Source of the DNA: Stentor roeselii
Taxonomy: Eukaryota; Ciliophora; Heterotrichea; Heterotrichida; Stentoridae
Assembly: GCA_006503475.1 (NCBI GenBank)
Contig: RSEH01000211.1
Location: 1 to 64,000, forward strand
Length of the DNA stretch: 64,000 nt
Reading direction: 5' to 3'
Shown here: positions 2,044-52,720 of the stretch, one piece after another
Numbering within the stretch: position 1 is the first letter of the stretch
Layout of the letters: every line of letters starts with the position of its first letter
The notes under the pieces: generated by a model
The model's database searches: none
The model's input: the letters and a program-made list of their open reading frames with translations, nothing else
Told to the model about the DNA's origin: nothing
Translations under genes and position numbers: made by a program

Positions 2044-4703
2044 ATGGGTTGTTTCAAGCTGAAACCTTTAAAACTTCTTGACACATCCACACTTCCATCA
2101 TTAGGAAGCAAGCGACTTTCAAATACCGGACTCTCATCATTGATCAAAGAATTCTCATCAGACAGAAGATCAACCAAAGAAAAATCCGCTAAATTCGACC
2201 CTCGTCTAAACCATCTTCCTACAGATCATGCTGAAATCGAATCAAAAATCGATTCAGCGATCCAGTATCAAGAAAAGAGCAGTTTCAAATCTTTAAAATC
2301 CTATCATCCCACTTCATTTTCAACTTTTTATCTCCATCCCACCTAACAAACCTGGCCCATTCATTCAAATTCATTCATCTAGAGGCTAAAAAAATAATCT
2401 ACGCTGAAGGTGATCGTTTTCAGCACTTTTATATTATCAGCTCAGGGTCTGTTGAAGTCCTTTTGAACAATCAACGAAAAGCAGTTATTTCAAAAAATGG
2501 ACATTTTGGTGAATCGGGTCTTTTATTTAACTCTAAAAGCACCTCCACTATCAAGACTTTAGAAAATACTGAATGCTGGGTGTTGAAAAGGAATGATTTT
2601 AAAGATGCACTTCAGATGATTTCTTATGAAAAATTAGAGGAAAACAAGGAATTTTTGATGAATTTTCAATTTTTTAACAAGTTGTTAGAATATCAGCGGG
2701 ATTTTTTGATTAGTTCGGTGGTCGTTCATGAATTCGGACCAGGACAAAGAATCCTCCGAGAAAGAGACAAAGGAAACTTGATATATTTTATAAAAAAGGG
2801 GCAAGTTCTAGTAAGTATCGATGGTGTCCAACTAAGAACTTTAGGACCTGGAGAGTATTTCGGAGAGCAAGCATTAATATATAAAACCTTCCGCACAGCT
2901 TCAGTAGATACCCTAGACCAAGTAACCCTTCTCAGTCTAGACTCAAAAGAAATCGCGAATTTAATCGGAAGTGAATTCGAGTACTTATTATTCAATCACA
3001 GTCTTCGGATTTCAATGGAAAAAAACCATCATTTTTCAAAACTTCACAAAAATCAAATAGAAAAAATAATCGAAACAGTTGAAATCAAATATTTAGATAA
3101 AAAAGAAATTTTGATTCAAAAAGGAGAATTTTCTGGATTTTTTGTGATTTTTATCCTTAAAGGTAAAATTTTGAACGGGAATAAAACACTTAAAAAGTTT
3201 GAAATTATTGGAGAAAACGATCTATATGAACAAAAATCAAAAAAATATGATAAAAATTTTGTGACTCTTGATGAAACTGTTGTTGCAAAGATTTCTAAAC
3301 AAAAATTTGAGGAAATACTTGGAAAGGGTTTTAAAGAAGCTGTAAAAATGAATAAAATTTTAAATGTTTTAGAAAAAGTTAATATTTTTAGGAACCTTTC
3401 AAAGGAAAAAATAGAGTCTTTGGCTGTGAAACTTAAAATTGAGAAGTATGAAAAGGATCGAGTTATTTTGAAACAGAGTGAAGAGGGAGAAAAGTTGTTT
3501 ATTTTGAAAAAGGGAGAAGTTTTAGTTAAAGTTGGGAATAACTTTGTGAGAGAGGTTGTTAGACATGATTACTTTGGAGAAAGATCTTTGATTTTTAATG
3601 AAAATAGAACTGCTACTGTGATTTCTAAAGGATGTACGTGTTGGGTGCTTCAAAAGCAGGATTTTTTAGCTCTAATCACCCCTAAAACCCGTAAAATGAT
3701 CTTAAAAAGAATCGAGCTTCAAAACGATTCATTATCCTTAAAATCCCTAAAAATATTAAAACAACTCGGAAAAGGCACATACGGAAACGTTTTTACTGTA
3801 TATAACTCTAAATCAAATAACTTATATGCATTAAAAACAGTATCAAGAGAAAAAATAGAAACTCACAAAATCCAAAAAGACCTGACCCAAGAAAAGAAAA
3901 TCCTTTCAATGCTCGATCATCCATTCATCATAAATCTAATAAAAACCTTTAAAGACTCTCATCGAGTTTACCTTGTAATGGAACTAGTCCAAGGAATCGA
4001 CTTTTTCGACTTACTTCGAAAGTTCAATTCTTGGGAAGAAGAAAAAGCTCGATTTTACATTTCTTGTCTTGTTTTAATTCTTGAGTATCTTCATGAAAGA
4101 AAAGTGATTTACAGAGATTTGAAACCAGAAAATATCATCATCGATCAAGAAGGGTATCCTAAGTTAATTGACTTTGGCTTGGCGAAGGTCATTCAGGGAA
4201 GAACTTATTCGGTTGCGGGAAGTTCGCATTATATGGCACCTGAAATCATTAAAGGTCTTGGGTATGGACTTGAAGCTGACTATTGGAGTCTTGGAATTAT
4301 TATTTATGAAATTTTATGTAATCAGGTCCCTTGGGGAGAACATGAAGAGAATCCTATGGAAGTTTATAACTTGATTGTTAAAAATAAGATCATTTTACCT
4401 TCGAATATCAGAAATCATCATATTGCGAAACTTTTACAGAAATTGTTGAGTCAGATACCGGCTTCTAGAGGAAATATTGAAAGTATTAAAAAGGATGTTT
4501 GGTTCATTTCTATGGATTTTAACAGTTTATTAGAAAAAAATGTTCCTGCACCTTTTAAACCTGCAGTTGAGGATTATTCGAAATTGATTAAATCAGGTGT
4601 TTCGAACAAGCAGGGATTATCAAGATTTATTATGAAGTATGAAGATGGGTGTCAAAATCTAGCTATGGAAAAATTAGATAAACACTGGGATTTTAAGTTT
4701 TAA
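2044..4703 (+). pseudogene. cGMP-dependent protein kinase-like gene (PKG copy 1) with one frameshift
   Basis: A Met-Gly-Cys start (predicted N-myristoylation plus palmitoylation) opens a 100-codon frame. The rest of the PKG continues in another frame, which is recognisable from about 2280 (the CNB-A part beginning FKILSSHF) to the TAA at 4703. The two frames differ by a one-base loss near 2265-2283, and no 15-nt intron can fix this, because the shift requires a length of 2 modulo 3. Downstream the frame is intact: CNB-A (lacking the phosphate-binding Arg: KSTSTI), CNB-B (FGEQALIY..FRTASV), a degenerate CNB-C, CNB-D (FGERSLIF..NRTATV), and an AGC kinase with YRDLKPEN, DFG and a WDF-F tail. It is closest to the minus-strand copy at 34105-36753. 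The long clean downstream frame means either a very recent break or an assembly base error; in the latter case it is a functional kinase of ~885 residues. Confidence 0.8.
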
Positions 4704-5539
4704 AATCTTAGGATATTTAGTTAGAATATTTATGTTGAATAGCACAGGATTCAGAGTGTAAGGGGTATATGGAAAAATTTCAATATATAGACAATTAAAT
4801 TGGCTTTCAAAATATATATATTAAACTCAACTTTTATATATTTTTTAATATCTTGTATAAATTTAGAGAATACTGAAATATAAAGATTTTCATGCAGTTT
4901 TTAAGATATTTCTTTAAGTTCTTATATATATTTAGTATAATTTAAGTAATCTTACATCTCCAACTATTGATTATCTTAAATGAATTATTTTAAAGGTTTC
5001 ATTCAGGCATTAAATAGTTTTTATTATGTTGTTTCTCTGACTAAAACACTTGGTATTGTTAAATAATCATTAAACTTAATAATTAGATCAGAAGAGGAAG
5101 AAATATGAAATTTTTCATGTTGAATCAAAGAGAAATGCACTCAATCAGTAATCATTTATAGAAATCATTAGTTTTCAGTGTTTTATTGATTGAATAACAA
5201 AATTTTTCAATTCAGTGATTGGATTTGTTCATAATTCCATGAAAAACTCTAAATTAATACATTTTTTGAATAGATTCTTTATTCTCAGAAATAGTTATAA
5301 AGAACTCAGCTATTTTATTTAAAAACAGGATAAAAGTTCATTCTTATATCTGCTAAGTATATTAGGAGGGTCTTATTCTATAAAATGTTTGGTAATTAGT
5401 TATAGAAAAATGCTAGAAATCGATAAATCTCTCTATCGAACATTCTCGATCAGATTAAACAAAAATATCATAATAATTGCCCACCCAAATAAGTTTTAAA
5501 GCATTGAAAAACATAAGTTAATATCGTTTTCCCATATAA
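4704..5539. other. Intergenic between PKG copies 1 and 2
   Basis: 836 bp of AT-rich DNA with no frame of interest. It starts G/T-rich after the PKG stop and ends with CCCATATAAATG at the next start codon. Nothing else was recognised. Confidence 0.6.
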
Positions 5540-8404
5540 ATGGGTTGTAGTTCACTGAAACGATCAAGCGAAAAAGACCAAAAAAACCTAAAAAATCTTC
5601 AAAAAAACCAGAAATCTCAGAAAAAAACCCAAAAAAAACCACACTTACGAAGAAACCTAACAACAGAAACCACGACATTGCCCTTCCTTTCTGAAGAAAA
5701 TGAAAACCTGCTTAAATTCAAAAATTCTTTAACATCCGACGATCATCTTAACCTAGAGAAACTTGAAGCCATTCTTTCGACACATCCTCTTTTTTACAAC
5801 CTTTCTCATTCTCACCTAAAAAAATTATCAAAGAAATTTACTTTGATATTCGCAACTGAAGGCAAAATTTTGCTTAACGAAGAAGAAAAACCTAAAAATT
5901 TCTTCATAATTGACAAAGGACAAGTTGATGTTTTAGTAAAAAACCAGGTAAAAAGTTCACTTTTCCAAGGAATGCATTTTGGTGAAGCTTCAATAATTAA
6001 TAATCCTAAAATAAAAGCAACTTTCAGGGCTCAACAAGAAACTCTTTACTTTTTATTAAAGACTAAAACAATTACTAAAATTTTAAATATTGTGCAGAAA
6101 CAAGTTTCATTCGAAGATTACTTAAAAAAAGTCGTTATTTTGAATGAAATTTTTAATAAAATTCCTGAAATTTTTTATAGTCACTTGAAAGTTTATCAGA
6201 TTGATTCAGGTCAACAGTTTTTGAGAGAAATGAATGAAAATATTGTTTATTTTGTAATGAATGGAAGAGTTATCGTTGGACAGGATGAGGAAAACTTTCA
6301 GATATATCAAGAAGGGGACTTTTTCAGCGAGTATCATCTTGAAAATGAATTCTTTGAAGGAATGGCTCGAGCTCAAGGGAAGACTGTTATACTTGCACTG
6401 GATACTTCCCCTTTGAGTGGAATCGACGATAATCTTTTGAATTTTCTGAAATTTTACTGTTCGATTAAAACTTGCATCAACCAAAGCAAAAAGTACTGCA
6501 AGTTAATTTCTGAGCAGCAAAGAATAGTGAGTAGAAATGCAGTGATTAAGATATTTGATAGAGAAACTGATGTTGAAGTTTTTTGTAAGGAGAGTTGGAT
6601 GATTTTTATAATTCAAGGAGAAATTACAGTAGGAGAAAAAAAATTCAAAAAGCATCAAATCGCCTTAATAAGAGAAAATAAAGGAAGAAGAAAAAATAAA
6701 GAAACAAGTGAAACTAGAGAAACTAAAAATACAAGAGAAAATCAAGAAAAAAGAGAAAATCAAGAAAAAAGAGAAAATCAAGAAAAAAGAGAAAATCAAG
6801 AAAAAAGAGAAAATCAAGAAAAAAGAGAAAATCAAGAAAAAAGAGAAAATCAAGAAAAAAGAGAAAATCAAGAAAAAAGAGAAAATCGAGAAAATCAAGA
6901 AACAAGAAAAAATCAAGAAACAAGAAAAAATCAAGAAACAAGAAAAAATCAACAAAAAATTGAAAATCAACAAAAATCTTGTTATAAAGTCTCTCAGGGC
7001 TCAGTGATCGCCTTGATATCCACCAAAAAAATAAAAAGTCTCTTTGGTAGGCCCCTGAACATCCAACTAAAACTAAACGATTTGCTATCCTTTTTAAAAA
7101 AAATCAGTATATTCAGCCATTTATCTTACTCCAAACTGACTGAACTAGTTTCCCTCCTCAAATATCAAGAGTTTGGCTTCAACGAATCAATTTACGAAAA
7201 AGGTGAAATCTCAGACTTCATTTTTCTTATTCAAACCGGACAAGTAAAAATCACAAAAACTTTCCATACACAAGAATTATTCCAAAATGATTTCTTCGGC
7301 GAAAGTTGCATATTCAACAATAAAATGAAAGAAACAGCTACTTCATACGGCTGCCGATGTTTAAAACTCTCAAAAAATCACTTTGAATCCTTTTTAAATC
7401 CAGAATATTTAACGAAAAACTTGAAAAAATTCAAAGAAATTGAAAATTTTTATCTTAATGATTTTTCAGTCATTAAACTCATCGGAAAAGGAGCGTTTGG
7501 GAATGTTTTTCTGACATTTCATGAAAACTCTAAAAATTTTTACGCTTTGAAGTCGATTCATAAGCAAAGAGTTGAAAGACTTGATATTTTTAAGAGTTTA
7601 TTACAAGAAAAAAAAGTTTTAGGAATTGTGGATCATCCTTTCATTGTAAAATTGGTGAAAACATTTAAAGATAATCAAAGGGTTTACTTTTTGATGGACT
7701 TGATTAAAGGAATTGATTTTTTTGAATATTTAAAAAGATCTGGAAAGTTGAAAGAAGAAGAAGTCATTTTTTATAGTTCTTGTTTGTTACTTGTTCTTGA
7801 GTATCTTCATAAACTGAAAGTTATTTATAGAGATTTGAAACCTGAAAATATTATTATTGATGAAAAAGGGTTTCCGATACTTGTGGATTTTGGAATGTCG
7901 AAAATTATTAAAGGAAGAACTTATACTTATGCTGGGACTTGTCAGTATATGGCTCCTGAAGTTATTTTAGGGAAAGGGTATAGCTTCGAAGCTGATTATT
8001 GGAGTTTGGGAATCGTAATGTATGAAATGATTGTAGGATGCTTGCCTTGGGGAAACTTAACAACGAACCCATTTGAAATTTCTGAAATGATATTAAAAGA
8101 GAAGCTGAAATTTCCAAATAAAATGAAAAAATCTGGTCTTTTAGGGATAATTGAAGGACTACTCATTAAAGACCCGAAACTGAGATCATGCAGCGATAAA
8201 CTGGAAAAACAACTGAAATTCGCAGGAGCTGATTTAGATAAAATCTTGAGTAAACAGGTTGAGACACCATTTAAACCGAAAAATTGTGAAAAGTTTGAAC
8301 CTGAAGGCTTGAAAAGAGCAAAGAATAATGATTTGTTGATTGCTAAATTCGAAAAAGATGTTGATTTGAGAGAAAAACTGAAAAATGATTGGGACTGCTT
8401 TTGA
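5540..8404 (+). CDS. PKG-like kinase copy 2, probably cyclic-nucleotide-insensitive, with repeat insert
   Basis: 954 residues, beginning MGC (myristoylation/palmitoylation signal) followed by a Lys/Gln-rich linker (~10-55). Four CNB-like regions precede an AGC kinase domain (~645-900) with the ATP-site Lys (YALKSI), catalytic YRDLKPEN, DFG (VDFGMSK), activation Thr (RTYTYAGT) and a WDCF tail, so the kinase looks active. The phosphate-binding cassettes are degraded: CNB-A reads FGEAS..KIKATF, CNB-B has no FGE or Arg, and CNB-D reads FGESC..MKETATS. The Arg that holds the cyclic phosphate is missing in all of them. Residues ~400-480, inside the CNB-C loop, are a Glu/Asn/Gln/Lys/Arg hexapeptide repeat absent from the paralogues. 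It may be regulated by something other than cGMP (inference). Confidence 0.88.
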   Translation: MGCSSLKRSSEKDQKNLKNLQKNQKSQKKTQKKPHLRRNLTTETTTLPFLSEENENLLKFKNSLTSDDHLNLEKLEAILSTHPLFYNLSHSHLKKLSKKFTLIFATEGKILLNEEEKPKNFFIIDKGQVDVLVKNQVKSSLFQGMHFGEASIINNPKIKATFRAQQETLYFLLKTKTITKILNIVQKQVSFEDYLKKVVILNEIFNKIPEIFYSHLKVYQIDSGQQFLREMNENIVYFVMNGRVIVGQDEENFQIYQEGDFFSEYHLENEFFEGMARAQGKTVILALDTSPLSGIDDNLLNFLKFYCSIKTCINQSKKYCKLISEQQRIVSRNAVIKIFDRETDVEVFCKESWMIFIIQGEITVGEKKFKKHQIALIRENKGRRKNKETSETRETKNTRENQEKRENQEKRENQEKRENQEKRENQEKRENQEKRENQEKRENQEKRENRENQETRKNQETRKNQETRKNQQKIENQQKSCYKVSQGSVIALISTKKIKSLFGRPLNIQLKLNDLLSFLKKISIFSHLSYSKLTELVSLLKYQEFGFNESIYEKGEISDFIFLIQTGQVKITKTFHTQELFQNDFFGESCIFNNKMKETATSYGCRCLKLSKNHFESFLNPEYLTKNLKKFKEIENFYLNDFSVIKLIGKGAFGNVFLTFHENSKNFYALKSIHKQRVERLDIFKSLLQEKKVLGIVDHPFIVKLVKTFKDNQRVYFLMDLIKGIDFFEYLKRSGKLKEEEVIFYSSCLLLVLEYLHKLKVIYRDLKPENIIIDEKGFPILVDFGMSKIIKGRTYTYAGTCQYMAPEVILGKGYSFEADYWSLGIVMYEMIVGCLPWGNLTTNPFEISEMILKEKLKFPNKMKKSGLLGIIEGLLIKDPKLRSCSDKLEKQLKFAGADLDKILSKQVETPFKPKNCEKFEPEGLKRAKNNDLLIAKFEKDVDLREKLKNDWDCF
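6737..6979 (+). repeat. In-frame 18-bp minisatellite encoding ENQEKR repeats
   Basis: Eight perfect or near-perfect 18-bp units encode ENQEKR (6737-6880). A 9-bp partial unit (ENR) and five diverged units (ENQETR, KNQETR twice, KNQQKI, ENQQKS) follow. The unit is a multiple of three, so expansion or contraction keeps the kinase frame. It sits in a surface loop of the third, degenerate CNB domain of PKG copy 2. The predicted product is a charged, probably helical or disordered segment. Confidence 0.95.
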
Positions 8405-9195
8405 TAGAATAATCTATATTTATAGAATCTTTCAATTAATCAATATCAGATATAAATTTCATCATGAAAATAAGGAATTTATCTTTAAGCAGAATAAGAT
8501 TATTTCATTATGAAAATAAGGAATTTATCTTTAAGCAGAATCAGATTATTCCATCATGAAAATAAGGAATTTAGATTTATATCTTTAAACACAATAAGAT
8601 TAATTCCGAAAAAAAATACATTATTGAATTATTCTTAATAGCCTTTATCTCATCCCTACACCTTTTTTGTTTACTTGAAAAAATTTGTTATTATTGTTGA
8701 TTAAGATTATCTCTCTATGAAACATTGATAAAAAGCTATTTATAATCTTTAAGGATTCTGAAAATTTGAAAGGCTTTGCATATCTTAATAAATTAAAGAT
8801 ATATTGAAAGTAAAGCCCAAGTCGATTAAAGCCTTATATAAAGATATTTTTTTATTATTTTCATACAGACTTAAATAAACTCATTCAATATTAGCGTAAA
8901 ATTTTAAATTTCAATTCTAGGTAACCTTTAAGCCAGATTTAGTCTTTAAGTTATATTTAGTTAATCTGGATGATCATATGGTAGTAAAAGTCAAATGTTA
9001 AAGACACGAAATTTTTTAGGATCAAATATTATTTTAAATCATTAATTATGAGACAAGCTTGCTTAATTATCTAAATATCAATATAAAGCATCCTAGTTCA
9101 AAAAACTTTCAATAATATCTGATGGTTTTTATCCGAGTCTTATAGAAATAGACCAACCTGTTAAATCAATTATTCAGGATTTTATAACTATAAAA
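8405..9195. other. Intergenic between PKG copies 2 and 3, with a short tandem repeat
   Basis: 791 bp of AT-rich DNA. The first 200 bp hold a three-copy 46-bp tandem repeat (listed separately). The remainder shows no frame and no RNA-like element. It ends with ACTATAAAAATG at the PKG copy 3 start. Confidence 0.6.
8457..8606. repeat. 46-bp direct tandem repeat, three units
   Basis: The core TGAAAATAAGGAATTT recurs at 8465, 8511 and 8557, exactly 46 bp apart, followed each time by ATCTTTAA-C and a variant of CAGAATAAGATTATTCCATCA. The third unit carries a small extra segment and is diverged. It is non-coding and lies just downstream of the PKG copy 2 stop. Confidence 0.85.
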
Positions 9196-11847
9196 ATGGG
9201 CTGTTGTAAGCTAGTTTCTAAAAATGCTTTGATCGATTCAACAATACCTACTCAAGGAAGCAAAATGATACAAAATAGTGAACTTTCCAACATAATTGAA
9301 GAGTATTCACCTGGACGCAGAGTGAGCAAGCAGAAGTCAGCTGTTTTTGATCCTCGCCTTTCACTATCTTCTACTGAAGAAATGGAGATTGTGAATGGAA
9401 GTGAGCAAAAGAAGCCACTCACAAGTCAAGAAAGAGCAAAAATAACCAAAATATTGAAAAATCATTTCATTTTCAACTCTTTATCCTCAGACCATATCAC
9501 AAAACTTACAAAAGAATTCAAAACTTTCTCATTCGAGCCAAAAAAAATCATTTTTTCTCAAGGCCACAGAGGTCAAAACTTTTACACAGTAAAATCAGGC
9601 TCAGTAGAAGTTCTTTTAGACAACCAAAGAAAAGCAGTGATTTCTTCAGGTGGATATTTTGGAGAAATGGCTTTAATATATAATTCCAAGAGAACAGCAA
9701 CAATTAGAACATTAGAAAAAGTAGTCTGCTGGGTGTTAAAGGGGGATAAATTCAGACAAGCCATCCAGTTAGTATCATCTGAAAAACTTCAAGAAAACAA
9801 GGACTTTTTAAAGAATTTCCATTTTTTCAATAAACTAACCGATCACCAAAAAGACTCCTTATTAAGTTTGTTAACAGTCCAAGAATTCTCTCCAGGTCAA
9901 AGAATAGTCCGAGAACAAGAAAAAGGCTCCATTATTTACATCATAAAAAAAGGAGAAGTCGTTGTAAGCATCGACGGAGTTCAACAAAGAATCCTCGGTC
10001 CAGGCGAATACTTCGGGGAACAAGCCTTGATCTACAAAAGTCTTCGCACCGCTTCAGTCGACGCCATCGGAAACGTCATCCTTCTCAGCCTAAACTCAAA
10101 AGAACTAGAAAATCTTCTCGGCAATGAGTTAGAATACGTCATCTACAAAAACAGCGTCAGGATCTCAATTGAAAAAAGTCATCACATATCAAAACTCCAA
10201 AAACACCAAAAAGAAAAAATCGTTGAAGCAGTTAAAATCGAACATATCACTGAAAATACCAAAATCATCGAAAAAGGAGAAAAAAATGAACTGGTTTTAA
10301 TCCTTAAAGGTGAAATCGTTGTAGGAAAAGAAAAACTCGGAAAATTTGAAATGGTCGGCGAAAGAGACCTTTTTCAGCAAAAAACAAAAAAATCTAAAGA
10401 CTTAAAAAGTTCTTCTGAGTCAGTCATCGCAAGAGTTACTTTTGATAAAATTCATGAAATTTTAGGAACATCTCTGAAAAATTCTCTAAAAATCTGTAAA
10501 ATTTTCAGGATTTTAAAAAAAATTCAGATTTTCCGAAATATTCCAGGTGGTAAACTTGAGTCACTTATTTCAAAGTTTTCAATTGAAAAGTTCGGAATGA
10601 ATAAAGTTATTTTTGAACAGGGTGAAATAGGAGAAAAATTTTTTATAATAAAAAAAGGAGAAGTCGTTGTTCAAGTCGACGGGCAGTTCATTCGAGAAGT
10701 GGTCCGACATGACTACTTCGGTGAAAGGTCTCTTGTCTTAAGTGAAGCCAGGACGGCGACAGTAATTTCAAAGAGTTGCACTTGTTGGGTGTTACACAAG
10801 CAAGACTTTTTAGACATCATCACAACAGAAGCCCGATCTTTAATCCTAAAAAGAATCGATCTCCAAAACGACTCAGTCACCTTAAAAGACCTGAAACTTT
10901 TGAAAAGACTCGGAAAAGGCACCTTCGGCAACGTTTTCGTCGCATTCAGCACAAAGTCCAAGTTAATCTACGCCCTTAAAACAGTAGAAAGAGAAAAAAT
11001 CGAAAGATACGAAATCCATAAAAATCTTACCCAAGAAAAAAAAATCATGTTACTTTTAGACCATCCTTTTATAGTGAAACTCGTGAAAACCTTTAAAGAT
11101 CGACTTCGAGTTTACTTTTTGATGGAGCTGGTTCAAGGAATCGACTTATTCGACCTTCTTCGAAAGTTTAATTCTTGGGAAGAAGAAAAAACTCGTTTTT
11201 ACTCTGCTTGTCTTGTTCTTGTTCTTGAGCATATTCATGAAAGAGGAGTCATTTATCGAGACTTGAAACCGGAAAATGTCATCATCGATCATGACGGGTA
11301 CCCGAAGGTCATTGATTTTGGACTTGCGAAGATTATTCAGGGAAGGACTTATTCAGTTGCTGGAAGTTCACATTACATGGCGCCTGAAGTTATTAAAGGC
11401 ATTGGGTATGGACTTGAAGCTGATTGTTGGAGCCTTGGAATTATTATTTATGAAATTTTATGTAATAAGGTTCCTTGGGGAGAACATGAAAAGGATCCTA
11501 TGGAAGTTTATAATTCGATTATCAAGGATAAACTTGTTTTTCCTCAATATGTGCAAAGTCCTTATACTGTTAAATTTATTGAAAAATTACTCAATCGAAA
11601 CCCGGCTTTAAGAGGGAAAATTGAAAATATTAAAAAAGATGCTTGGTTTTCTTCTGTTGATTTTGATGAATTGATTGAAAAAAATGTTAAACCTCCTTTT
11701 AAGCCTTGTGTTGAGGATTATTCGAAAATTGTTAAAAGTGATGTTTTGAAGAAACAAGATTTTGATAAATTTATTAGGAAATATGAAGACTGCTGGAAAC
11801 AAATGAAAAAGGAGGAGTTGAATTATACTTGGGATTTTGAATTTTGA
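9196..11847 (+). CDS. cGMP-dependent protein kinase-like, copy 3 (intact, four CNB domains)
   Basis: 883 residues, predicted to phosphorylate Ser/Thr targets in response to cGMP. The MGCCKL start predicts myristoylation and palmitoylation, hence membrane attachment. CNB-A (~80-190, FGEMALIY..KRTATI), CNB-B (~200-315, FGEQALIY..LRTASV) and CNB-D (~430-555, FGERSLVL..ARTATV) keep the phosphate-binding Glu and Arg. Each has Thr after the Arg, the residue associated with cGMP preference; PKA has Ala there. CNB-C (~320-425) is degenerate. The kinase (~565-825) has GKGTFGNVF, YALKTV, YRDLKPEN and DFG, and Ser replaces the activation-loop Thr (RTYSVAGSS). The WDFEF tail recalls the C-terminus of animal PKG. 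Length and the four-CNB layout with a degenerate third domain match the alveolate/apicomplexan PKG type. It has the best-preserved cGMP sites of the four copies here. Confidence 0.93.
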   Translation: MGCCKLVSKNALIDSTIPTQGSKMIQNSELSNIIEEYSPGRRVSKQKSAVFDPRLSLSSTEEMEIVNGSEQKKPLTSQERAKITKILKNHFIFNSLSSDHITKLTKEFKTFSFEPKKIIFSQGHRGQNFYTVKSGSVEVLLDNQRKAVISSGGYFGEMALIYNSKRTATIRTLEKVVCWVLKGDKFRQAIQLVSSEKLQENKDFLKNFHFFNKLTDHQKDSLLSLLTVQEFSPGQRIVREQEKGSIIYIIKKGEVVVSIDGVQQRILGPGEYFGEQALIYKSLRTASVDAIGNVILLSLNSKELENLLGNELEYVIYKNSVRISIEKSHHISKLQKHQKEKIVEAVKIEHITENTKIIEKGEKNELVLILKGEIVVGKEKLGKFEMVGERDLFQQKTKKSKDLKSSSESVIARVTFDKIHEILGTSLKNSLKICKIFRILKKIQIFRNIPGGKLESLISKFSIEKFGMNKVIFEQGEIGEKFFIIKKGEVVVQVDGQFIREVVRHDYFGERSLVLSEARTATVISKSCTCWVLHKQDFLDIITTEARSLILKRIDLQNDSVTLKDLKLLKRLGKGTFGNVFVAFSTKSKLIYALKTVEREKIERYEIHKNLTQEKKIMLLLDHPFIVKLVKTFKDRLRVYFLMELVQGIDLFDLLRKFNSWEEEKTRFYSACLVLVLEHIHERGVIYRDLKPENVIIDHDGYPKVIDFGLAKIIQGRTYSVAGSSHYMAPEVIKGIGYGLEADCWSLGIIIYEILCNKVPWGEHEKDPMEVYNSIIKDKLVFPQYVQSPYTVKFIEKLLNRNPALRGKIENIKKDAWFSSVDFDELIEKNVKPPFKPCVEDYSKIVKSDVLKKQDFDKFIRKYEDCWKQMKKEELNYTWDFEF

Positions 11848-19332: not shown

Positions 19333-20307
19333 TTATAAATATATTATGTCTCGAACCTCGCTTGTTGCACGATTTTGAGTTAAGGTTTTTTTCATCATTG
19401 CGCTGCAGGCTCTTCGGTGTATGTATGGACTGTAGTTTTTTATTCTTTCTGAAGCTTTTTGAACTGCGCTTTTCACTTCTGGACTCACACGGTTTTTTTG
19501 GATTTCGGGAGGTCTCTTATAAGGAAAAATTGATTCAACCATCATATCATGCATCGCTTTAGCACTCAATTTCCCTCCATACTTCAAACTCGACTTCTAA
19601 TTATCTCTTACCGGCCTTTCCTTGCGATCATTAGTGATACAAACCCTACGAGAAGGATCCGAAATTAAATTAACATCAACCTTAATAGAAGTATTCCAAT
19701 TTTTTCCCTCTTTTTTCACATCATTTATAGAATTTTGATTGAAAATCTCTGAAGTAATACTATTACTTTCGTATTTTTTCTCTATTTTCGTATTAAAGTT
19801 CCAACTAGCCGAATGCGGTCGACGTCGAGAAGCTTCTCGAGAAGGTCTTCGACTTGAATGGCATTCACGGCTTCGAGGCTTTGAAGAACTTGGAGAAGAA
19901 GAAAGGTTAAGAGACTGTTTCAAGTCATCATAACAAGTGTAGTCTATTTTTTTGCTTAGAAGGTAAAAATGCTGCTTTAGTTGTGAAAGGGTTATTTCTC
20001 CTGATATGTACTGCTGGGCTAGGTCAGGGTAGTTGTTTCCCATCATTTTTTCTATCAGTTCTGCTCGTTTTAGTCGTTCTAGTGCCTCGTCGTTGACTTT
20101 TATTGGGTTGTTTGAATAGTCTTTTGGTTTTATTTGTAGTTGGCGCTCTGATTCTGTGTCTGATGAACTGAATGAAGAACCTTCTGAATCAGCGGGTTTA
20201 GGTTGTTTTCTATTGAGTAAATATTTGTATTTCTGTAAGATCACTTTGAGGATTTTTTCATGTGATTTTGAGTAAAGTTTTTTGTATTTTTGTTCTCTTC
20301 CTTTCAT
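19333..20307 (-). CDS. Unknown Ser/Arg-rich protein, one 15-nt intron
   Basis: Two minus-strand frames (20307-19597 and the one ending at 19333) join when the 15-nt intron GTAAGAGATAATTAG (19611-19597) is removed. The first frame would otherwise stop at the intron's own TAG. The joined product is 319 residues: a Lys-rich helical N-terminus, a Ser-rich acidic patch (~44-55), a short helical unit (~70-115, QQYISGEITLSQLKQHF), a Ser/Arg-rich linker, and a C-terminal ~80-residue segment with KYGGKLSAKAMHDMMV. No family recognised. It is divergent from the gene at 20425 with 117 bp between starts. Confidence 0.72.
19597..19611 (-). other. 15-nt spliceosomal intron, phase 0
   Basis: GTAAGAGATAATTAG on the minus strand, lying between CCG and AAG codons. 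Its removal restores a continuous frame across the two exons. Confidence 0.9.
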
Positions 20308-21359: not shown

Positions 21360-22964
21360 ATGGGAAACTGCACTACCCTTCAAAAGAAAAAATCAAATGA
21401 CTCAAAATCCAAGACAAAACATTCAGGTCCAAAACCGAGCTTAAACATCAAAAAAACACCAGAACTTGTGATCAGCTCAGCGAATTCCTTCTCAAGTCAA
21501 AAACACTCCAAGAGCAGCTTTTCGGTAGCCTCAGACACTCAAGAAAAAGTTTCAGAAACTCAATCAAAGGCCAAAAAATCTTCAAATTCAGAAATAGACG
21601 AAAAAACATTGCCCGATGGGTTAGTTGATAGGAACTCATACCAAAGAAAGAAAATGAGAAAAGCTTTATATGAAAGAAATAAACTTTTATTGAGTCCAAC
21701 GCCAGAAATCCTGAATCCTGATGATCCTAACAAAAGATTTGATCTTTCTTCTAAAGATTTATTTGAAGCCAGTTTTTTTTCAAAGGTTTGTAAAAGTTTT
21801 GATGGCTTCGCAAGTGATCAATTCAGGAAACCCGCTAATAGCTTTGTGGAAGATGAAGGGTTGAAAGGCTTTCTTATGCAAAATGAGAGAAATGAGAAAA
21901 AATCGAAAAATAGCTTAAAAAGATTAAGCAGGAATAGCTTTCAGGCTGAATTGGTCCCTGACTTCCTTGATGGGGTCACGGCTTTAGATGTGAATATTCT
22001 TTACAATGTTAATCAAGAGTTCGGAGATGGAAATGAGTTAGTTCAAAGATTTGGAACCTTGAGGTCAATTACAAAAAATAATAAAAAACGCTTCTCTTTG
22101 AAATCACTCAGTTGTCATGACTTGGAAAATATCAGCTTAAAGCATATCAAAATCAGCAAAAATTCTGAAATTTTGATGTTTTTTATACCTTTTGTGAAAA
22201 ATAATAATGATTTTATTGATTATCGCTTCACATCGATTGACTCTCATTATTTTGAGTGCTTTTGTAAGAATTATGATGAATTTGAAGAGAAAGTTAAAAG
22301 TGAAGCTAATGGTTTTATGAGGTTAATTGAAAGGTTTCCAAATCGATGGACTGATGGAATCATTCCTTTTGTCATTGAAAAAAACTTGATGTTTGTAAGC
22401 AACCCAAATAATGAAAATATTTATAGCATCGTTTTCAAGTCAATGAGAACAGTTGAAAGTCAAACGATTATTAGGTTCGTTAAATATAATCCTAAAGAAC
22501 ATACACAGTTCTTAAATTTCAGTCTGGATAAAATGAATAGCTCTTATCTTGGTGCTTCTAAAGGAAAAAATCAAATAACTTTAAGCTGTAGGGCAATTGA
22601 AGCTGATGTTTTACATCAATTGATGCATAGTTTTGGCTTCATGCATATGCACCAGAAATCAAATGATGAGTCATTTGATTATATAAGCAGAGCAAATGTA
22701 AAAAACGCAAACCATGATGGTCATGCATGCTTTTATGGATTAAAGTTTGGACCTTTTGATGCTGATTCAGTCCTTATGTGGCCAAGTTGTGAGAATATGA
22801 TTTCATCTACCAATGATGAATATAAACCAGCAACACAACTTTCGAAATTTGACAGTTTAAAGGTGAATTTTTTTTATGATAATTCAAATTTAAACTTGAG
22901 TGATGAAGAATTAAGGCATAAATATAAAGCATTTAAAAAAGAAGCTGAAATTTTAAAACAATAG
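21360..22964 (+). CDS. N-myristoylated astacin-like (M12A) protein with inactive metalloprotease site
   Basis: 534 residues. It starts MGNC, a myristoylation/palmitoylation signal, and has no signal peptide, so it should face the cytosol. The first ~120 residues are Ser/Lys-rich and disordered. The C-terminal third resembles the astacin catalytic domain: RWTDGIIPFVIE (cf. the opening strand of astacins), the zinc site HQLMHSFGFMH, and a Met-turn-like DSVLMWPS. All three zinc His residues are present, but the catalytic Glu (HExxH) is Gln, codon CAA, and the Met-turn Tyr is Trp. It is therefore probably a zinc-binding pseudoprotease. Secreted astacins being normal, a lipidated intracellular version is unusual. 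Role unknown. Confidence 0.75.
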   Translation: MGNCTTLQKKKSNDSKSKTKHSGPKPSLNIKKTPELVISSANSFSSQKHSKSSFSVASDTQEKVSETQSKAKKSSNSEIDEKTLPDGLVDRNSYQRKKMRKALYERNKLLLSPTPEILNPDDPNKRFDLSSKDLFEASFFSKVCKSFDGFASDQFRKPANSFVEDEGLKGFLMQNERNEKKSKNSLKRLSRNSFQAELVPDFLDGVTALDVNILYNVNQEFGDGNELVQRFGTLRSITKNNKKRFSLKSLSCHDLENISLKHIKISKNSEILMFFIPFVKNNNDFIDYRFTSIDSHYFECFCKNYDEFEEKVKSEANGFMRLIERFPNRWTDGIIPFVIEKNLMFVSNPNNENIYSIVFKSMRTVESQTIIRFVKYNPKEHTQFLNFSLDKMNSSYLGASKGKNQITLSCRAIEADVLHQLMHSFGFMHMHQKSNDESFDYISRANVKNANHDGHACFYGLKFGPFDADSVLMWPSCENMISSTNDEYKPATQLSKFDSLKVNFFYDNSNLNLSDEELRHKYKAFKKEAEILKQ

Positions 22965-23050: not shown

Positions 23051-23617
23051 ATGCAATCATCAGAACTAACAAACCAAACCTGCACAATCTGCCTTTTACC
23101 TTTAGAGTACCCCATATGCAAGTTAGTCTGCGACCACATCTACTGTTTCGAGTGCATTCAAGAGTGGTGCAAGACACATGAGACCTGCCCTCTCTGTTCC
23201 CAAGTGATAAAACTCGGCTTTAAATACGATTCAACCATCGAGATCACTGAAGTAGTCTTCGACAAGCAAGTAGTTGAAAAAGAACTATCCTTGGACTGCC
23301 TGGACCACAGTTACTTCAAGCAAGAAATCTCGAAACTTCTAAGACTTTGTTACGAGTTAGAAGTCTCACGCTTTAAACAACGAAACTCAAAAGGTACCCC
23401 TGGAGAATGGCGAGGACTTCAGAATATTCGAAACAGGTTAGAAACTTTAAGACTGGAAAATCAGGCTTTTGTCAGGTTCGACCCTCAGGCTTTGTTGGAT
23501 GAGGTTTATTCGATGGAACAGGATGTTGACAGTATCAAGAATGGAGTTTTTCAAGAAAAGGACTTTTGTGAAGTGGTTGAACATGACTACTCTGATGAGG
23601 ATTATTATGATGATTGA
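23051..23617 (+). CDS. RING-finger (C3HC4) E3 ubiquitin ligase-like protein
   Basis: 188 residues. The RING lies at ~10-52: CTIC, CKLVCDHIYCFECI, CPLC with spacing of the C3HC4 type. The remainder is helical and ends in an acidic Asp/Glu/Tyr tail. RING proteins recruit E2 enzymes for ubiquitin transfer; no substrate domain is recognisable. It is convergent with the thioesterase gene, the stops being 6 bp apart. Confidence 0.8.
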   Translation: MQSSELTNQTCTICLLPLEYPICKLVCDHIYCFECIQEWCKTHETCPLCSQVIKLGFKYDSTIEITEVVFDKQVVEKELSLDCLDHSYFKQEISKLLRLCYELEVSRFKQRNSKGTPGEWRGLQNIRNRLETLRLENQAFVRFDPQALLDEVYSMEQDVDSIKNGVFQEKDFCEVVEHDYSDEDYYDD

Positions 23618-24842: not shown

Positions 24843-26613
24843 AAATGAAAACATGATTCAAGTCATTATGTCCTTTCACTATTCCAAGTTCCAAGGGAGT
24901 AAGTCCTTTAGAGTCAGTAGACCGACAATCACTTCCACAGTCAATTAAAAAGTTAACAATATTGAGCAGTCCATTTTTGCAGGCATAATGAAGAGGAAGT
25001 CGTTGTTTCTCATCTAAACAATTGATAGTCAGTCCAAGTCTGATCACTTTTTTCAGTTTTGCCTCGTTTCCTTCAATCACTGCCCTGTGAACTGCAGTTC
25101 TTTTCCTTTTTAGTCTTTACTTCAGGTCTGAAGAATAAGGATTTGTCCCTTTTGATAACAGGTACTCGGCGCATTCGAAGTTTCCGAATGAACAAGCGAT
25201 TAAAAAAGCGTTTTCTCCTTTGGTCTGAGTGGTGATTACGTTTCTTTTATCTAGTTGAACTGCTTTTCGCAGAAGGTATTGCAGAAGTTGAAGGTTTCCT
25301 GTCCTGGATGCGAACATTAATAGGGTTTCTTGGAGTTTTATGTCGAAAGAGTTGAGATCGTATCCTGTTTCTATCAATTTTTCTAGGATTTTAGAATAGT
25401 TTCGGTTTCCTGATTTGAATATTTCTTCGATTTCTACTATTTTTAATTCGGTTTCGGATTTTGATGATGATTTTTCATTTTTACATATTCCAGCCTCATC
25501 ATCATTAAAACTTTCATCAAACCTATTCCTGAACTCCCTGATCAACCTTTCACTTTCCTGATCCCTTTCACTAGGCAATCTACTATTCGCAGGTTTTGTA
25601 ATTTCCATTTTAACTTTCAAAACAGCAAAAATCAAGTCCTTAACTTCCAGATTTTCATAGTTTTCAGCAAGTTTTTCAAAAGTCCTGGCAAGTATCTTCG
25701 GATCAGCATTAAAAATATATTTCTTATCAAAAAGTCCTCTAATATCAAAAGAGGCGAGATCAAGAAAGTCCCAAGTTTTAACAAACAATTCATTATGACT
25801 TTCCAACCGATTAAAACTGATCTCAACTTCTTGAATCCTGCTGAAATTAAAAGTCCTTGACTTGCCTTCTCGAACTGCAATAGCCCTGACAAGTTTCCAG
25901 GCCCCTTGAGCAGTAATAAGATTAAAATTCAAATTAACAACTTTCAAAGTCCCTGAAACATTTGCGATGATCTCAGCGATGACCTCAGCTCCTAAGTCAG
26001 TGATCAAGTTGCCTTCAAGTTGGATATTTTCAATATTCTGATGGTTTTTCATGATTTTTTGAAGGGGAAAAACGTGATCATCAGTCATGTCCAGGTGGTT
26101 TAGTCTCAGTTCAGTCATTTTTTCATCTGAAAATAAAGACTTTATCGTGTTTAACAAGCAGATTTTCGTTGATCGAATAGTTTCTATTGAAAGTTCTGAG
26201 TTTTCAATTAAAACTTTCGCTTTTCGCAGATAGTCAAGAACATGGGAAAGTTTTTCATCAGTTTCATGAAATTTTTTCTTGAAAAATTCGACTTTTTTCT
26301 GAGTGTCTTTTAGACGAGCTTCAAGAGAATGGGAGTAAAATTGGGATTGCTTGATTTTCTTTGTTGCTTCGGAAATCTCTCCGAGGTAAGAGTCTCGCCA
26401 TTTTGACTCGTTTTTTAGACGTTCTTCGAGGTAGACTAGTTTTATTTGGAGGTCTTCGTTTTTCTTTTTAAGATCCAGGATTTCTTGAAAGGTTTCTGCA
26501 CTTTTTAAGATTTACTTTTCGGTTGTTGGCTGATTTGAGTTTACCAGGAATGTTCGGGATAGACGAGAATTTGATCTGGAATTCGCAGGACGCTTATGAA
26601 GGGCTCTTATCAT
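24841..26613 (-). CDS. Coiled-coil / leucine-rich-repeat / ankyrin protein, two 15-nt introns
   Basis: The ATG at 26613 (reading MIRALHKRPAN) opens a frame that continues through introns at 26515-26501 and 25120-25106 to the TAA at 24841, giving 580 residues. Order: a short basic N-terminus, a coiled coil (~35-130), leucine-rich repeats (~155-250, e.g. IQLEGNLITDLGAEVIAEII), a linker with an acidic Ser-rich part, then about four ankyrin repeats (~405-575, e.g. RTAVHRAVIEGN and LPLHYACKNGLLNIVNFLI). The second intron falls inside the ankyrin array, and splicing restores the repeat consensus across the join, which strongly supports it. A scaffold role is likely; partners unknown. Confidence 0.85.
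25106..25120 (-). other. 15-nt intron, phase 2
   Basis: GTAAAGACTAAAAAG on the minus strand. Removal joins CTG AA to G and restores an ankyrin repeat across the join. Confidence 0.9.
26501..26515 (-). other. 15-nt intron, phase 2
   Basis: GTAAATCTTAAAAAG on the minus strand. Unspliced it puts TAA in frame; spliced, the coiled-coil frame runs back to the ATG at 26613. Confidence 0.85.
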
Positions 26614-34104: not shown

Positions 34105-36753
34105 TTAAAACTCAAAATCCCAATCTTTATCATTTCTATCCTTTTCAAATTGTTTTCGATCATCTTCATATTTCAAAATAAATTTTCCTAAGTCTTTCTG
34201 CATTAAAATACTCGACTTAATCAATCTGCTATAGTCCTCAACATCTGGTTTAAAAGGTGGATGGACATTTTTTTCTATTAAACAGTTAAAACTGATAGAA
34301 ATAAACCAAACATCCTTTTTGATACTTTCTATACTTCCTCTACAAGCAGGTGTATGATTAAGTAACTTTTGAACAAGTTTCACAACATGATTATTTTTCA
34401 ATGTTTGCGGTAAAGTAAGTTTCCCATTGATAATCAAATTATAAACTTCCATCGGGTCATTTTCATATTCTCCCCAAGGTACCTTATTGCATAAAATTTC
34501 ATAAATAATGACTCCAAGGCTCCAATAGTCCGCTTCAAGTCCATATCCTAAACCTTTGATGACTTCAGGAGCCATATAATGAGTACTTCCTGCAATTGAA
34601 TAGGTCCTGCCCTGAATTACTTTCGCTAATCCAAAGTCAATCAACTTGGGGTACCCGTCTTGATCGATGATGATATTTTCTGGCTTAAGGTCGCGATATG
34701 CAACTTTTCTTTCATGTAGATATTCAAGAATCAAAACAAGACAAGAAACATAAAATCGGGCACTTTCTTCTTCCCATAACTTGAAACGTCGAAGTAAGTC
34801 GAAAAAGTCGATGCCTTGGACAAGCTCCATCACGAAATAAACTCGATGAGGGTCTTTAAAGGTCTTTACGAGCTTTACGATGAAAGGATGATCGAGCATC
34901 AAAAGGATTTTCTTTTCTTGGATCAGGTATTTTTGGATTTGGTGAGTTGTTATTTTGGACCTTGATACGGTTTTCAATGCGTATAAGTGCTTTGTTTTGG
35001 AATTGTATACAGTGAAGACGTTTCCGTATGTGCCTTTACCTAATCTTCTTAAGATTTTTAAGTCTTTTAAAGATACTGAGTGGTTTTGAAGGTCGATTCT
35101 TTTGAGGATCATTTCATGTGTTTTTTCTGTGATTAGATCTAAAAAGTCCTGCTTTTTGAGAACCCAACATATACACCCTTTAGATATAACAGTGGCAGTC
35201 CTCGTTTCATCAAAAATCAAAGATCTTTCTCCAAAGTAATCATGTCTAACCATCTCCCTTACAAAGTTATTCCCAACATTAACTACCACCTCTCCCTTTT
35301 TTACAATATACAACTTTTCTCCCTCTTCAAATCGGTTAAAAATAACTTCATCTCTGCTAAACCTCTCAATTTTCAGTTTTCCAACCAAAGACTCAAGTTT
35401 ATCCCTTGAAATATTCCTAAAAATATTGATTTTTTCTATAATTTTTAAAACTTTATTCATTTTTACAGTTTTTCTAAACTCTTTCCCAAGAACTTCCTCA
35501 ATTTTCTGAGCTGAGATACTCGCAACAACAGTTTCATCAAGTATCATAATTTTTTTTAAATATTTCTTTGAATTATGTTTAAACATATCCTCTTCTCCAA
35601 TAATTTCAAATTTCTTCAGTATTTTTTTGTTATATAAAACTTCACCTTTAAGAATAAAAACAACAGAAAATCCTTCTTCTTGATTATTAATGATGAAAAT
35701 TTCGTTTTTATCTAGATGTTTGATTTCAACGGCATCAACAATTTTTTCTATTTGATTTTTATAAAGGTTAGAAAAATGTTTACTTTTTTCCATTGAAATT
35801 TGTAAACTGTGGTTGAATAGTAGGTATTCGAAATCAGGTCCAAGTAAACTTGCTATTTCCTTTAAGTTTAGACTAAGAAGGGTTACTTGATTGATTGCGT
35901 CTACAGAAGCTGTGCGAATTGTTTTGTATATTAAGGCTTGTTCTCCGAAGTAATCTCCTGGTCCTAATGTTCTTTGCTGGACTCCATCGACACTCACCAA
36001 AACTTGACCTTTTTTAACGAAATATATCAAACTTCCCTTGTCCTTTTCACGGAGTACCCTTTGTCCAGGCCCGAATTCACGAACAACCAAAGCACTTATC
36101 AAAAAATCTTGCTGATACTCTGAAAGTTTATTAAAAAAATGAAAGTTCATTAAAAATTCCTTACTTTCCTCTAATTTTTCATTTGAAATCAACATAATTG
36201 CCTCTTTAAAATAATCTCTTTTCAATACCCAAAATTCAGTTTTTTCTAAAGTTTTCATAGTTGAGGTGCTTTTTGAGTTCAAGAAAAGAGCCGATTCACC
36301 GAAATGTCCATTTTTTGAAATTATTGCTTTTTGTTGGTTATTCAGAAGGACTTCAACAGACCCTGACTTGATTATGTAAAAGTGTTGAAAACAATCTCCT
36401 TGAGCGTAAATTATTTTTTTTCCTTCAAATACGACAGAATTGAATGAATGGGTAAGGTTCGTTAGGTGGGATGGGGTTAAAGAGCTGAAGATGAAATGGG
36501 AAGATAGGATTTTAAAGACCTCAGACTTTTCTTTTTCTGAGATTGGAATTGCTGATTCGATTTCAGCCTGCTCTGATTGAAAATTATTCAGACGAGGGTC
36601 AAAAAATGCTGACTTCTGCTTGGTTAATCTTCTGTCTGATGAGAATTCTTCGATCATTGTTGCTAGCCTTGAGCTTGAAAACCGCTTGGTTCCTTGTGGT
36701 GAGAGCCTGGTCATCTCAGGACTTTTCGAAGGTTTCAGCTTTGAACAACCCAT
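34105..36753 (-). CDS. cGMP-dependent protein kinase-like, copy 4 (intact)
   Basis: 882 residues, starting MGCSKLKPSKS (myristoylation/palmitoylation). Four CNB regions: CNB-A keeps FGES but has Ser in place of the phosphate-binding Arg (KSTSTM), CNB-B (FGEQALIY..IRTASV) and CNB-D (FGERSLIF..TRTATV) are complete with the Thr typical of cGMP sites, and CNB-C is degenerate. The kinase domain is complete (GKGTYGNVF, YALKTV, YRDLKPEN, DFG, RTYSIAGST, APE), ending WDFEF. It shares the N-terminal motif, the CNB-A substitution and many residues with the frameshifted copy 1, so these two are the closest pair, now ~30 kb apart and inverted. It is probably activated by cGMP through two high-quality sites instead of three. 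Confidence 0.93.
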   Translation of the reverse strand: MGCSKLKPSKSPEMTRLSPQGTKRFSSSRLATMIEEFSSDRRLTKQKSAFFDPRLNNFQSEQAEIESAIPISEKEKSEVFKILSSHFIFSSLTPSHLTNLTHSFNSVVFEGKKIIYAQGDCFQHFYIIKSGSVEVLLNNQQKAIISKNGHFGESALFLNSKSTSTMKTLEKTEFWVLKRDYFKEAIMLISNEKLEESKEFLMNFHFFNKLSEYQQDFLISALVVREFGPGQRVLREKDKGSLIYFVKKGQVLVSVDGVQQRTLGPGDYFGEQALIYKTIRTASVDAINQVTLLSLNLKEIASLLGPDFEYLLFNHSLQISMEKSKHFSNLYKNQIEKIVDAVEIKHLDKNEIFIINNQEEGFSVVFILKGEVLYNKKILKKFEIIGEEDMFKHNSKKYLKKIMILDETVVASISAQKIEEVLGKEFRKTVKMNKVLKIIEKINIFRNISRDKLESLVGKLKIERFSRDEVIFNRFEEGEKLYIVKKGEVVVNVGNNFVREMVRHDYFGERSLIFDETRTATVISKGCICWVLKKQDFLDLITEKTHEMILKRIDLQNHSVSLKDLKILRRLGKGTYGNVFTVYNSKTKHLYALKTVSRSKITTHQIQKYLIQEKKILLMLDHPFIVKLVKTFKDPHRVYFVMELVQGIDFFDLLRRFKLWEEESARFYVSCLVLILEYLHERKVAYRDLKPENIIIDQDGYPKLIDFGLAKVIQGRTYSIAGSTHYMAPEVIKGLGYGLEADYWSLGVIIYEILCNKVPWGEYENDPMEVYNLIINGKLTLPQTLKNNHVVKLVQKLLNHTPACRGSIESIKKDVWFISISFNCLIEKNVHPPFKPDVEDYSRLIKSSILMQKDLGKFILKYEDDRKQFEKDRNDKDWDFEF

Positions 36754-52057: not shown

Positions 52058-52720
52058 ATGGGCTGCGCGAGTTCAAGGTTTGATAAAAGTCAGGAGGAAG
52101 TTGTTTTGGAAACTTTGGAAAGAAATTTGTTGTTTTGTAAGAACTCGGCTTGTGATGTGGACTTGATTGTTAGGAAGTATTCGTTTCAGGGAGTTATTAA
52201 TGAAAATCATTGGGGGAATATTGTCAAGATGCTTAATTTGAATTATACTTCTGAGAATATTAAGGAGTTTTACAGGTGTTTTGAAAGTAAGGACAAAGGA
52301 TTCTATCTTAATAAAATTCTTGTACTGGGAATACTTAATGGAAATGATTCAAAAGAAAACAAAGCCAGACTATTATTCGAAGCTTTCGACACTCTTGACT
52401 CGAAAATTGCAGATAAAAGCACTTTAAGATATATTTTTGATAGTATCATTGAATGCTCTGTTGAAAGTGTGAAATCACTTGTTAAAGTAATGAATCAAGG
52501 TGAAAAGGAAGAAAAACTCATAGAATTTTTACAAACTATTGGAGCAAAAGTAAGAAAGGTTCGTAAAACCTGGACTGAAAATATTATGCAAGATGAAGAA
52601 AATGTTTCTATGAACCGTTTCATTGAATTTATGAAAAATGATCAAGATATGGACTTGCTAAGTCCTGTTGGAGTTAGACACACCTTGAAAAAATTTAAGA
52701 TAGAAAATAAAGATAGTTGA
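52058..52720 (+). CDS. Lipid-anchored EF-hand-like protein (MGCASS start)
   Basis: 220 residues beginning MGCASSRF, a strong myristoylation/palmitoylation signal. The body has the helix-loop-helix rhythm of calcineurin-B/neuronal-calcium-sensor proteins (~45-120: FYRCFESKDKGFYLNKIL, LLFEAFDTLDSKIADKSTLRYIF; and ~185-195: VSMNRFIEFM), but the loops lack the full set of calcium-binding acids. Probably a membrane-bound calcium-sensor relative, possibly not binding calcium. Assignment is tentative. Confidence 0.65.
   Translation: MGCASSRFDKSQEEVVLETLERNLLFCKNSACDVDLIVRKYSFQGVINENHWGNIVKMLNLNYTSENIKEFYRCFESKDKGFYLNKILVLGILNGNDSKENKARLLFEAFDTLDSKIADKSTLRYIFDSIIECSVESVKSLVKVMNQGEKEEKLIEFLQTIGAKVRKVRKTWTENIMQDEENVSMNRFIEFMKNDQDMDLLSPVGVRHTLKKFKIENKDS

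What the first reader, a model, noticed from the sequence alone, without database searches (positions are those of the whole stretch)
21360..22964. Cytosolic, myristoylated pseudo-astacin
HQLMHSFGFMH keeps all zinc ligands but swaps the catalytic Glu for Gln, and the protein starts MGNC in place of a signal peptide. Astacins are normally secreted proteases. A lipid-anchored, zinc-binding, non-cleaving version would be a new use of the fold.
Basis: partly seen in the sequence, partly recalled or inferred. Interest (0 to 1): 0.7.

Follow-up and report, generated by a model that had tools for sequence, protein, structure and literature searches.

The report
Lipid-anchored dead astacin family, ciliate
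A ciliate gene encodes an astacin-type metalloprotease fold that has lost the residue needed to cut proteins, kept its three zinc-binding histidines, and begins with a fatty-acid anchor signal instead of a secretion signal; it has three sister genes of the same design, so it looks like an evolved, maintained protein rather than one odd gene.

Summary
Observation confirmed. The 534-aa ORF at 21360-22964 (+) starts MGNC, has no signal-peptide-like stretch, and carries an astacin domain (Pfam E 5.8e-13; the 21 best Foldseek matches are astacins) with HQLMHSFGFMH: three zinc His kept, catalytic Glu replaced by Gln. Tyr149 of astacin is lost too (Met-turn SVLMW).

The genome holds at least 8 such genes with 9 astacin domains. 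One of 9 keeps the Glu; 7 of the 8 Glu-less domains keep all three His. Four genes form a clade; 4 of 4 begin MG with Cys or His at position 4, and none keeps Glu (Q, Q, L, Q). Related genes have Cys-rich tails, two scoring as UBR box, an intracellular N-degron reader. Standard code and 15-nt introns suggest a Stentor-like heterotrich.

Best reading: a membrane-tethered pseudo-astacin that binds proteins or peptides without cutting. Sequence, fold and missing Glu are shown; lipidation, zinc and inactivity are inferred; the ligand is a guess. Zinc-site-keeping pseudo-ADAMs and lipidated dead calpains are known; my limited literature searches found no astacin case. New variant of a known kind.

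The parts
21360..22964 (+). Gene for the pseudo-astacin, 534 aa, TAG stop
21360..21434 (+). First 25 residues MGNCTTLQKKKSNDSKSKTKHSGPK: predicted N-myristoylation site (Gly2), possible palmitoylation site (Cys4), basic tail (7 Lys/Arg)
   Evidence: lipidation inferred
21435..22313 (+). Long N-terminal region, Ser/Lys-rich, no Pfam match, not alignable to paralogue C212 (residues 26-318)
22347..22889 (+). Astacin domain, residues 330-510
22614..22646 (+). HQLMHSFGFMH: zinc His 419, 423, 429; Gln420 in place of the catalytic Glu
22767..22781 (+). Met-turn position SVLMW; Trp474 in place of astacin Tyr149

Best explanation
A cytosolic, membrane-tethered pseudo-astacin. N-myristoylation at Gly2, probably palmitoylation at Cys4, and a basic tail hold it on the cytosolic face of a membrane. 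The astacin domain keeps a zinc site through three His but cannot activate water because the general base Glu93 is Gln and Tyr149 is Trp. It most likely works as a binder: it holds a protein or peptide ligand in the former substrate cleft at the membrane, as a scaffold, a receptor, or a competitor of an active relative such as C281 domain 1. SHOWN: astacin sequence and predicted fold, missing Glu and Tyr, three His, no signal peptide, four-gene clade. INFERRED: lipidation, zinc occupancy, lack of activity. GUESSED: the ligand and the scaffold or competitor role.
For: Fold: Pfam E 5.8e-13; AlphaFold2 on a 7-row alignment gives pTM 0.69, and the ten 10-residue blocks covering protein residues 328-427 have pLDDT 86-97; Foldseek ranks 1-21 are astacin-family chains, best 6saz E 4.0e-8, probability 1.00. 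Dead site maintained: 8 of 9 domains lack Glu (Q, L, N or I instead) while 7 of these 8 keep all three His. In the 6 complete Glu-less, His-bearing domains 23 of 182 ungapped columns are invariant and the three His are among them (0.0018 for three given columns). Control: 6 of 6 bacterial astacins read (of 18 plasmid hits) have HExxHxxGxxH and a Met-turn ending in Tyr. Anchor: 4 of 4 clade members start MG, against 8 of 60 non-family ORFs of at least 150 aa in the DNA held, while their tails have drifted beyond alignment in the pair tested. NMT gene, E 8.9e-67. Cytosolic: no signal-peptide-like stretch in any of the 8 genes; astacin Cys42 and Cys64 face other residues and Cys84 faces a gap (alignment, numbering); two related genes score as UBR box.
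Against: No direct evidence of lipid, zinc, ligand or expression. The part of the model from residue 428 on, with the third zinc His, is weaker (blocks of 69, 60, 42, 56, 79, 48 up to about residue 487), and the Foldseek rmsd to astacin is 7-8 A with TM-score 0.59 or less. Without an alignment the fold was not recovered (mean pLDDT 32.2). Zinc could be only structural and the cleft unused. The four genes share ancestry, so 4 of 4 is not four independent events, and MG starts are not rare here (8 of 60). No homologue from another eukaryote could be examined.
Confidence: 0.5

Rival explanations
1. Structural scaffold only: zinc merely ties the two subdomains together and the protein acts through its long N-terminal region or its surface; the old cleft binds nothing.
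For: The His are kept but Glu, Tyr149 and mostly the Met-turn Met are not, as expected if zinc has a purely structural role; the N-terminal 318 residues are long and low-confidence in the part modelled.
Against: Cleft-side residues were not analysed, so nothing here speaks against it strongly; one domain (C281 d2) has lost all three His yet survives in an open frame, so zinc is not essential to the fold in every copy.
Confidence: 0.27
2. Still a protease, with Gln or water activated in another way, or by pairing with an active astacin.
For: Three zinc His kept; an active-looking relative exists in the same genome (C281 d1, HEMMH...SILNY).
Against: Glu93 is the general base/acid and Tyr149 a zinc ligand of astacin (PMC6400186, passages), and both are gone; the position of the Glu is occupied by Q, L, N or I in relatives, which does not suggest one replacement chemistry.
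Confidence: 0.07
3. Decaying pseudogene or recent loss of function without a role.
For: One relative, C508c, is split between two frames, so the family does produce broken copies.
Against: Open frame of 534 codons; a clade of four divergent genes (best identity 45%) that all keep open frames, MG starts and three His.
Confidence: 0.04
4. Non-cutting decoy or inhibitor of astacin-type effectors of intracellular bacteria such as the LegP class.
For: LegP is the best NCBIfam match of the window protein (E 1.2e-14) and of C281 d1 (E 3.9e-24), and astacin-type effectors act inside host cells by their annotation.
Against: Scores are far below the curated 300 bits; no evidence of contact between such bacteria and this ciliate; four old, divergent copies do not show a recent arms race.
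Confidence: 0.04

Closest known systems
Astacin family, M12A / Pfam PF01400 (crayfish astacin, BMP1, meprins)
   Same: Sequence above the Pfam cut-off, predicted fold, zinc helix HxxxHxxGxxH
   Different: No catalytic Glu, no Tyr149, no signal peptide, the alignable disulfide Cys absent, predicted lipid anchor
ADAM7 and other pseudo-ADAMs (M12B)
   Same: Metzincin pseudopeptidases; ADAM7 is listed as HQLGHNLGMQHD, the same Glu-to-Gln change with the His kept (PMC11266112 Table 2, passages read)
   Different: Transmembrane with an extracellular protease domain; another metzincin family; Met-turn Met typically kept (same passages)
Kinetoplastid calpain-like proteins such as CAP5.5
   Same: Protease-fold protein without catalytic residues, N-myristoylation and palmitoylation, member of an expanded protist family (PMC13317235, passages read)
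   Different: Cysteine-protease fold, no homology; attached to the cytoskeleton
LegP astacins (NCBIfam NF045530)
   Same: Best NCBIfam match; annotated as effectors, so acting inside host cells
   Different: 54.4 bits against a curated cut-off of 300; sequences not fetched, active site not compared
UBR box, Pfam PF02207
   Same: Related genes C281 and C508c score over the Pfam cut-off; nearest PDB chains are UBR4, weak
   Different: The window protein has no such domain; C508a and C508b have a similar Cys/His tail by eye but no Pfam hit

Membership tests
Pfam PF01400 Astacin (homology) | Score over the gathering cut-off 22.5 bits | tested here: met
   49.4 bits, E 5.8e-13
Pfam PF01400 Astacin (homology) | Astacin-like fold | tested here: met
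   pTM 0.69; Foldseek ranks 1-21 astacin family; C-terminal subdomain modelled with low confidence
M12A peptidase (working enzyme) | Zinc ligands His92, His96, His102 | tested here: met
   H419, H423, H429
M12A peptidase (working enzyme) | General base/acid Glu93 | tested here: not met
   Gln420
M12A peptidase (working enzyme) | Met147 and Tyr149 at the Met-turn | tested here: not met
   SVLMW: Leu and Trp
M12A peptidase (working enzyme) | Secretion signal and disulfides C42-C198, C64-C84 | tested here: not met
   No signal-peptide-like stretch; C42, C64, C84 not matched by Cys; C198 is outside that alignment
N-myristoylated proteins | Gly2 with Ser/Thr or small residue at position 6 | tested here: met
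   MGNCTT; relatives MGQCSC, MGNHSS, MGACIS; the rule itself is recalled
N-myristoylated proteins | Lipid actually attached | not testable with these tools
   needs labelling or mass spectrometry
Zinc-binding pseudopeptidase | Zinc bound and no proteolysis | not testable with these tools
   needs purified protein
LegP (NF045530) | Score over the curated cut-off 300 bits | tested here: not met
   54.4 bits

The most novel reading that the evidence does not exclude
In this ciliate lineage the astacin fold moved into the cytosol and became a peptide-reading module: one branch joined to UBR boxes (N-degron readers), another lipid-anchored, with nearly all copies kept zinc-competent but non-cutting, so that a protease family turned into membrane and N-degron peptide receptors around one probably active astacin-UBR enzyme (C281).
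Probability: 0.15. Interest if true: 0.78.

Novelty: new variant of a known kind. Interest (0 to 1): 0.52.

Why it matters
Astacins are known as secreted or cell-surface proteases (PMC11266112 and recalled). A maintained group of non-cutting copies on the cytosolic side would show that the fold can serve purely as a binding module inside the cell, and would give a natural set (one Glu-bearing, seven His-keeping Glu-less, one without His) for testing what the zinc site of a metzincin does without catalysis. The link between an astacin domain and UBR boxes in one protein would tie a protease fold to N-degron reading.

Tried and rejected
Tried without result: profile search for relatives in genome contigs and viral contigs with alignment A2 (no conserved enough stretch); single-protein scans (genome contigs, none confirmed of 111 stretches, viral contigs, none confirmed of 3); the DNA search in genome contigs returned 0, but the pattern I wrote was one base short at the Gly codon, so this zero means nothing and used the last scan. 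Phages: no match. AlphaFold2 on the single sequence failed (mean pLDDT 32.2); I had meant to submit the alignment and spent one of two jobs. Second structural aligner not available.

Considered and rejected: that TGA codes for Trp here. One WD40-like gene (L022, near 4948) has an in-frame TGA, but the 7 or 8 TGA-ended ORFs of the window end where genes end and are not followed by long open frames, with one 38-residue exception. That introns alter the reading of the target: see observation check. In one search the C281 row was measured from a wrong Met; one search repeats it from the right one. In one search the MG background of 8 in 65 still held family members; one search gives 8 in 60.

Full report
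OBSERVATION. The ORF at 21360-22964 (+) is real: 534 codons, first in-frame ATG, TAG stop. It encodes MGNCTTLQKKKSNDSKSKTKHSGPK... and, at residues 419-429, HQLMHSFGFMH. Pfam finds one domain, Astacin, E 5.8e-13, 49.4 bits (cut-off 22.5), residues 330-453. In the PDB by sequence, 11 of the 12 distinct sequences listed at E up to 10 are astacin-family chains, best E 1.5e-6. Against astacin numbering (H92, E93, H96, H102, M147, Y149; disulfides C42-C198, C64-C84; passages of PMC6400186) the window protein keeps the three His, has Gln for Glu93, Leu for Met147 and Trp for Tyr149, and lacks Cys where C42, C64 and C84 align.

ORGANISM. The genome (G000) has 44.4 Mb in 522 contigs and is not named. 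All three stop codons end window ORFs (16 TAA, 12 TAG, 8 TGA of 36). Three interrupted window ORFs were examined, and each is bridged by a 15-nt GT..AG stretch with A at position 10 (3 of 3). Stentor coeruleus has introns of 15-16 nt, in most of which the branch-point A is the 10th base, and the paper's introduction places it before ciliate-specific codes arose (passages of PMC9505925). I infer a Stentor-like heterotrich ciliate; this was not tested further (rRNA search failed).

PARALOGUES. A search with the protein gives 9 matches in the genome, one of them weak (E 0.005); the Astacin profile gives 9, all over the cut-off. They fall into 8 genes with 9 domains. Zinc motif / Met-turn: window HQLMHSFGFMH / SVLMW; C505 HQIMHCLGFMH / SVLYC; C325 HLIMHCLGFMH / SVLMK; C212 HQLMHSLGFFH / SIMHY; C508a HNLMHILGFVH / SVIHS; C508b HILMHILGFTH / SVLHL; C508c HILMHVIGFTH / SVMHL; C281 domain 1 HEMMHCLGFSH / SILNY; C281 domain 2 no zinc His (RLLMTCLGFTY) / SILFF. 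So Glu is kept in 1 of 9, all three His in 8 of 9, Tyr149 in 2 of 9, the Met-turn Met in 2 of 9. C508c is split between two frames, a broken gene or an assembly fault.

CLADE. In a maximum-likelihood tree with 6 bacterial domains (14 rows; C508c left out because its domain is incomplete) the four genes C129 (window), C505, C325 and C212 form a clade (98/97), C212 outermost; C508a and C508b pair (96/91); these six together have 92/92, not starred; the two C281 domains lie outside them. End branches are long and 4 of 11 inner branches are open. The order fits loss of Glu before the six split, with Tyr149 still present in C212, but ancestral states were not computed. The four-gene clade is exactly the set that starts MG: MGNCTT, MGQCSC, MGNHSS, MGACIS. 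The other four genes do not. Among 60 non-family ORFs of at least 150 aa in the DNA held, 8 start MG; three of these are the cyclic-nucleotide-kinase-like genes of this window, so the background is raised and the ORFs include some that may not be genes. The N-terminal regions of the window gene and C212 do not align (E 0.74).

IS THE DEAD SITE KEPT? In the 6 complete Glu-less His-bearing domains, 23 of 182 ungapped columns are invariant; the three His are among them, the Glu column is not (0.0018 for three given columns, which ignores ancestry). Control: 18 plasmid records match C281 domain 1; 6 were read and 6 of 6 have HExxHxxGxxH and SxM[HN]Y. The zinc site is thus constrained while the catalytic position varies.

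LOCATION. No gene of the 8 has a signal-peptide-like N-terminus (best 12-residue hydropathy mean in the first 42 residues from -0.30 to 0.68; 7 genes, C281). The genome encodes an N-myristoyltransferase (E 8.9e-67). C281 and the C508c fragment score as zf-UBR (E 3.7e-8 and 4e-7); C508a and C508b do not, though their tails look alike by eye. PDB support for UBR is weak (UBR4, E 0.002 for C281 and 0.043 for C508c). UBR boxes read N-degrons in the cytosol (recalled). No sign of an outward route was found.

FOLD. AlphaFold2 on residues 218-534 with seven family rows: mean pLDDT 64.8, pTM 0.69; protein residues 328-427 at pLDDT 86-97 by blocks, weaker after that, and below 50 for most of residues 218-325. 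Foldseek: 60 PDB matches at E up to 0.001, ranks 1-21 of the 50 shown are astacin-family chains, then MMPs mixed with meprin and myroilysin; best 6saz, E 4.0e-8, TM-score by target 0.59, rmsd 7.3 A. Without an alignment the model failed.

MECHANISM. I commit to a membrane-tethered binder that keeps zinc and does not cut (0.5). Rivals: zinc as a structural staple only (0.27), residual or assisted proteolysis (0.07), decay (0.04), decoy for bacterial astacins (0.04).

NOVELTY. A 2024 review of inactive metallopeptidases lists ADAMs, neprilysin-like, carboxypeptidase-like, MPP, EBP1 and FtsHi cases in the passages I saw; astacin occurs once in its text, as a metzincin (find passages, not the whole paper). 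Searches: astacin + pseudoprotease, 2 papers; astacin + ciliate, 28 papers, 20 listed, judged by title and abstract start; Stentor + astacin, 0; astacin + UBR box, 0; astacin family + pseudoenzyme terms, 6 listed, none counting 'astacin family', 4 papers, none on a pseudo-astacin by title. These cover one open-access library only. I did not see a pseudo-astacin described there; nematode or other cases in journals not held are possible.

Noticed in passing
L019 2677-6636 (G000 C281): One open frame of 1310 residues from its first Met with two astacin domains, the first canonical (HEMMHCLGFSH), the second without zinc His, and zf-UBR matches: an astacin-UBR fusion. Literature search for astacin + UBR box gave 0 papers.
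   Followed up: partly
L018 2201-7344 (G000 C508): Three neighbouring astacin genes with Cys-rich tails, two on one strand and one on the other; one is split between two frames.
   Followed up: partly
window 2463-11847 and 34105-36753: Four long ORFs with cyclic-nucleotide-binding-like and kinase-like sequence; three start MGC, suggesting lipid-anchored cyclic-nucleotide-dependent kinases. Only 5540-8404 was checked by Pfam (Pkinase, cNMP_binding).
   Followed up: partly
window 5540-8404: The kinase ORF contains a run of near-identical ENQEKR units.
   Followed up: no
window 44940-44955, 19597-19615, 25105-25120: 15-nt GT..AG introns with A at position 10 bridge three interrupted ORFs.
   Followed up: yes
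L022 4945-4950: In-frame TGA inside a WD40-like ORF pair, with the frame continuing; readthrough, error or a broken gene.
   Followed up: partly
window 23051-23617: RING-finger protein gene directly downstream of the pseudo-astacin, 86 bases after its stop.
   Followed up: partly
window 52058-52720: A further MGCASS start on a 220-residue ORF without a Pfam match.
   Followed up: no
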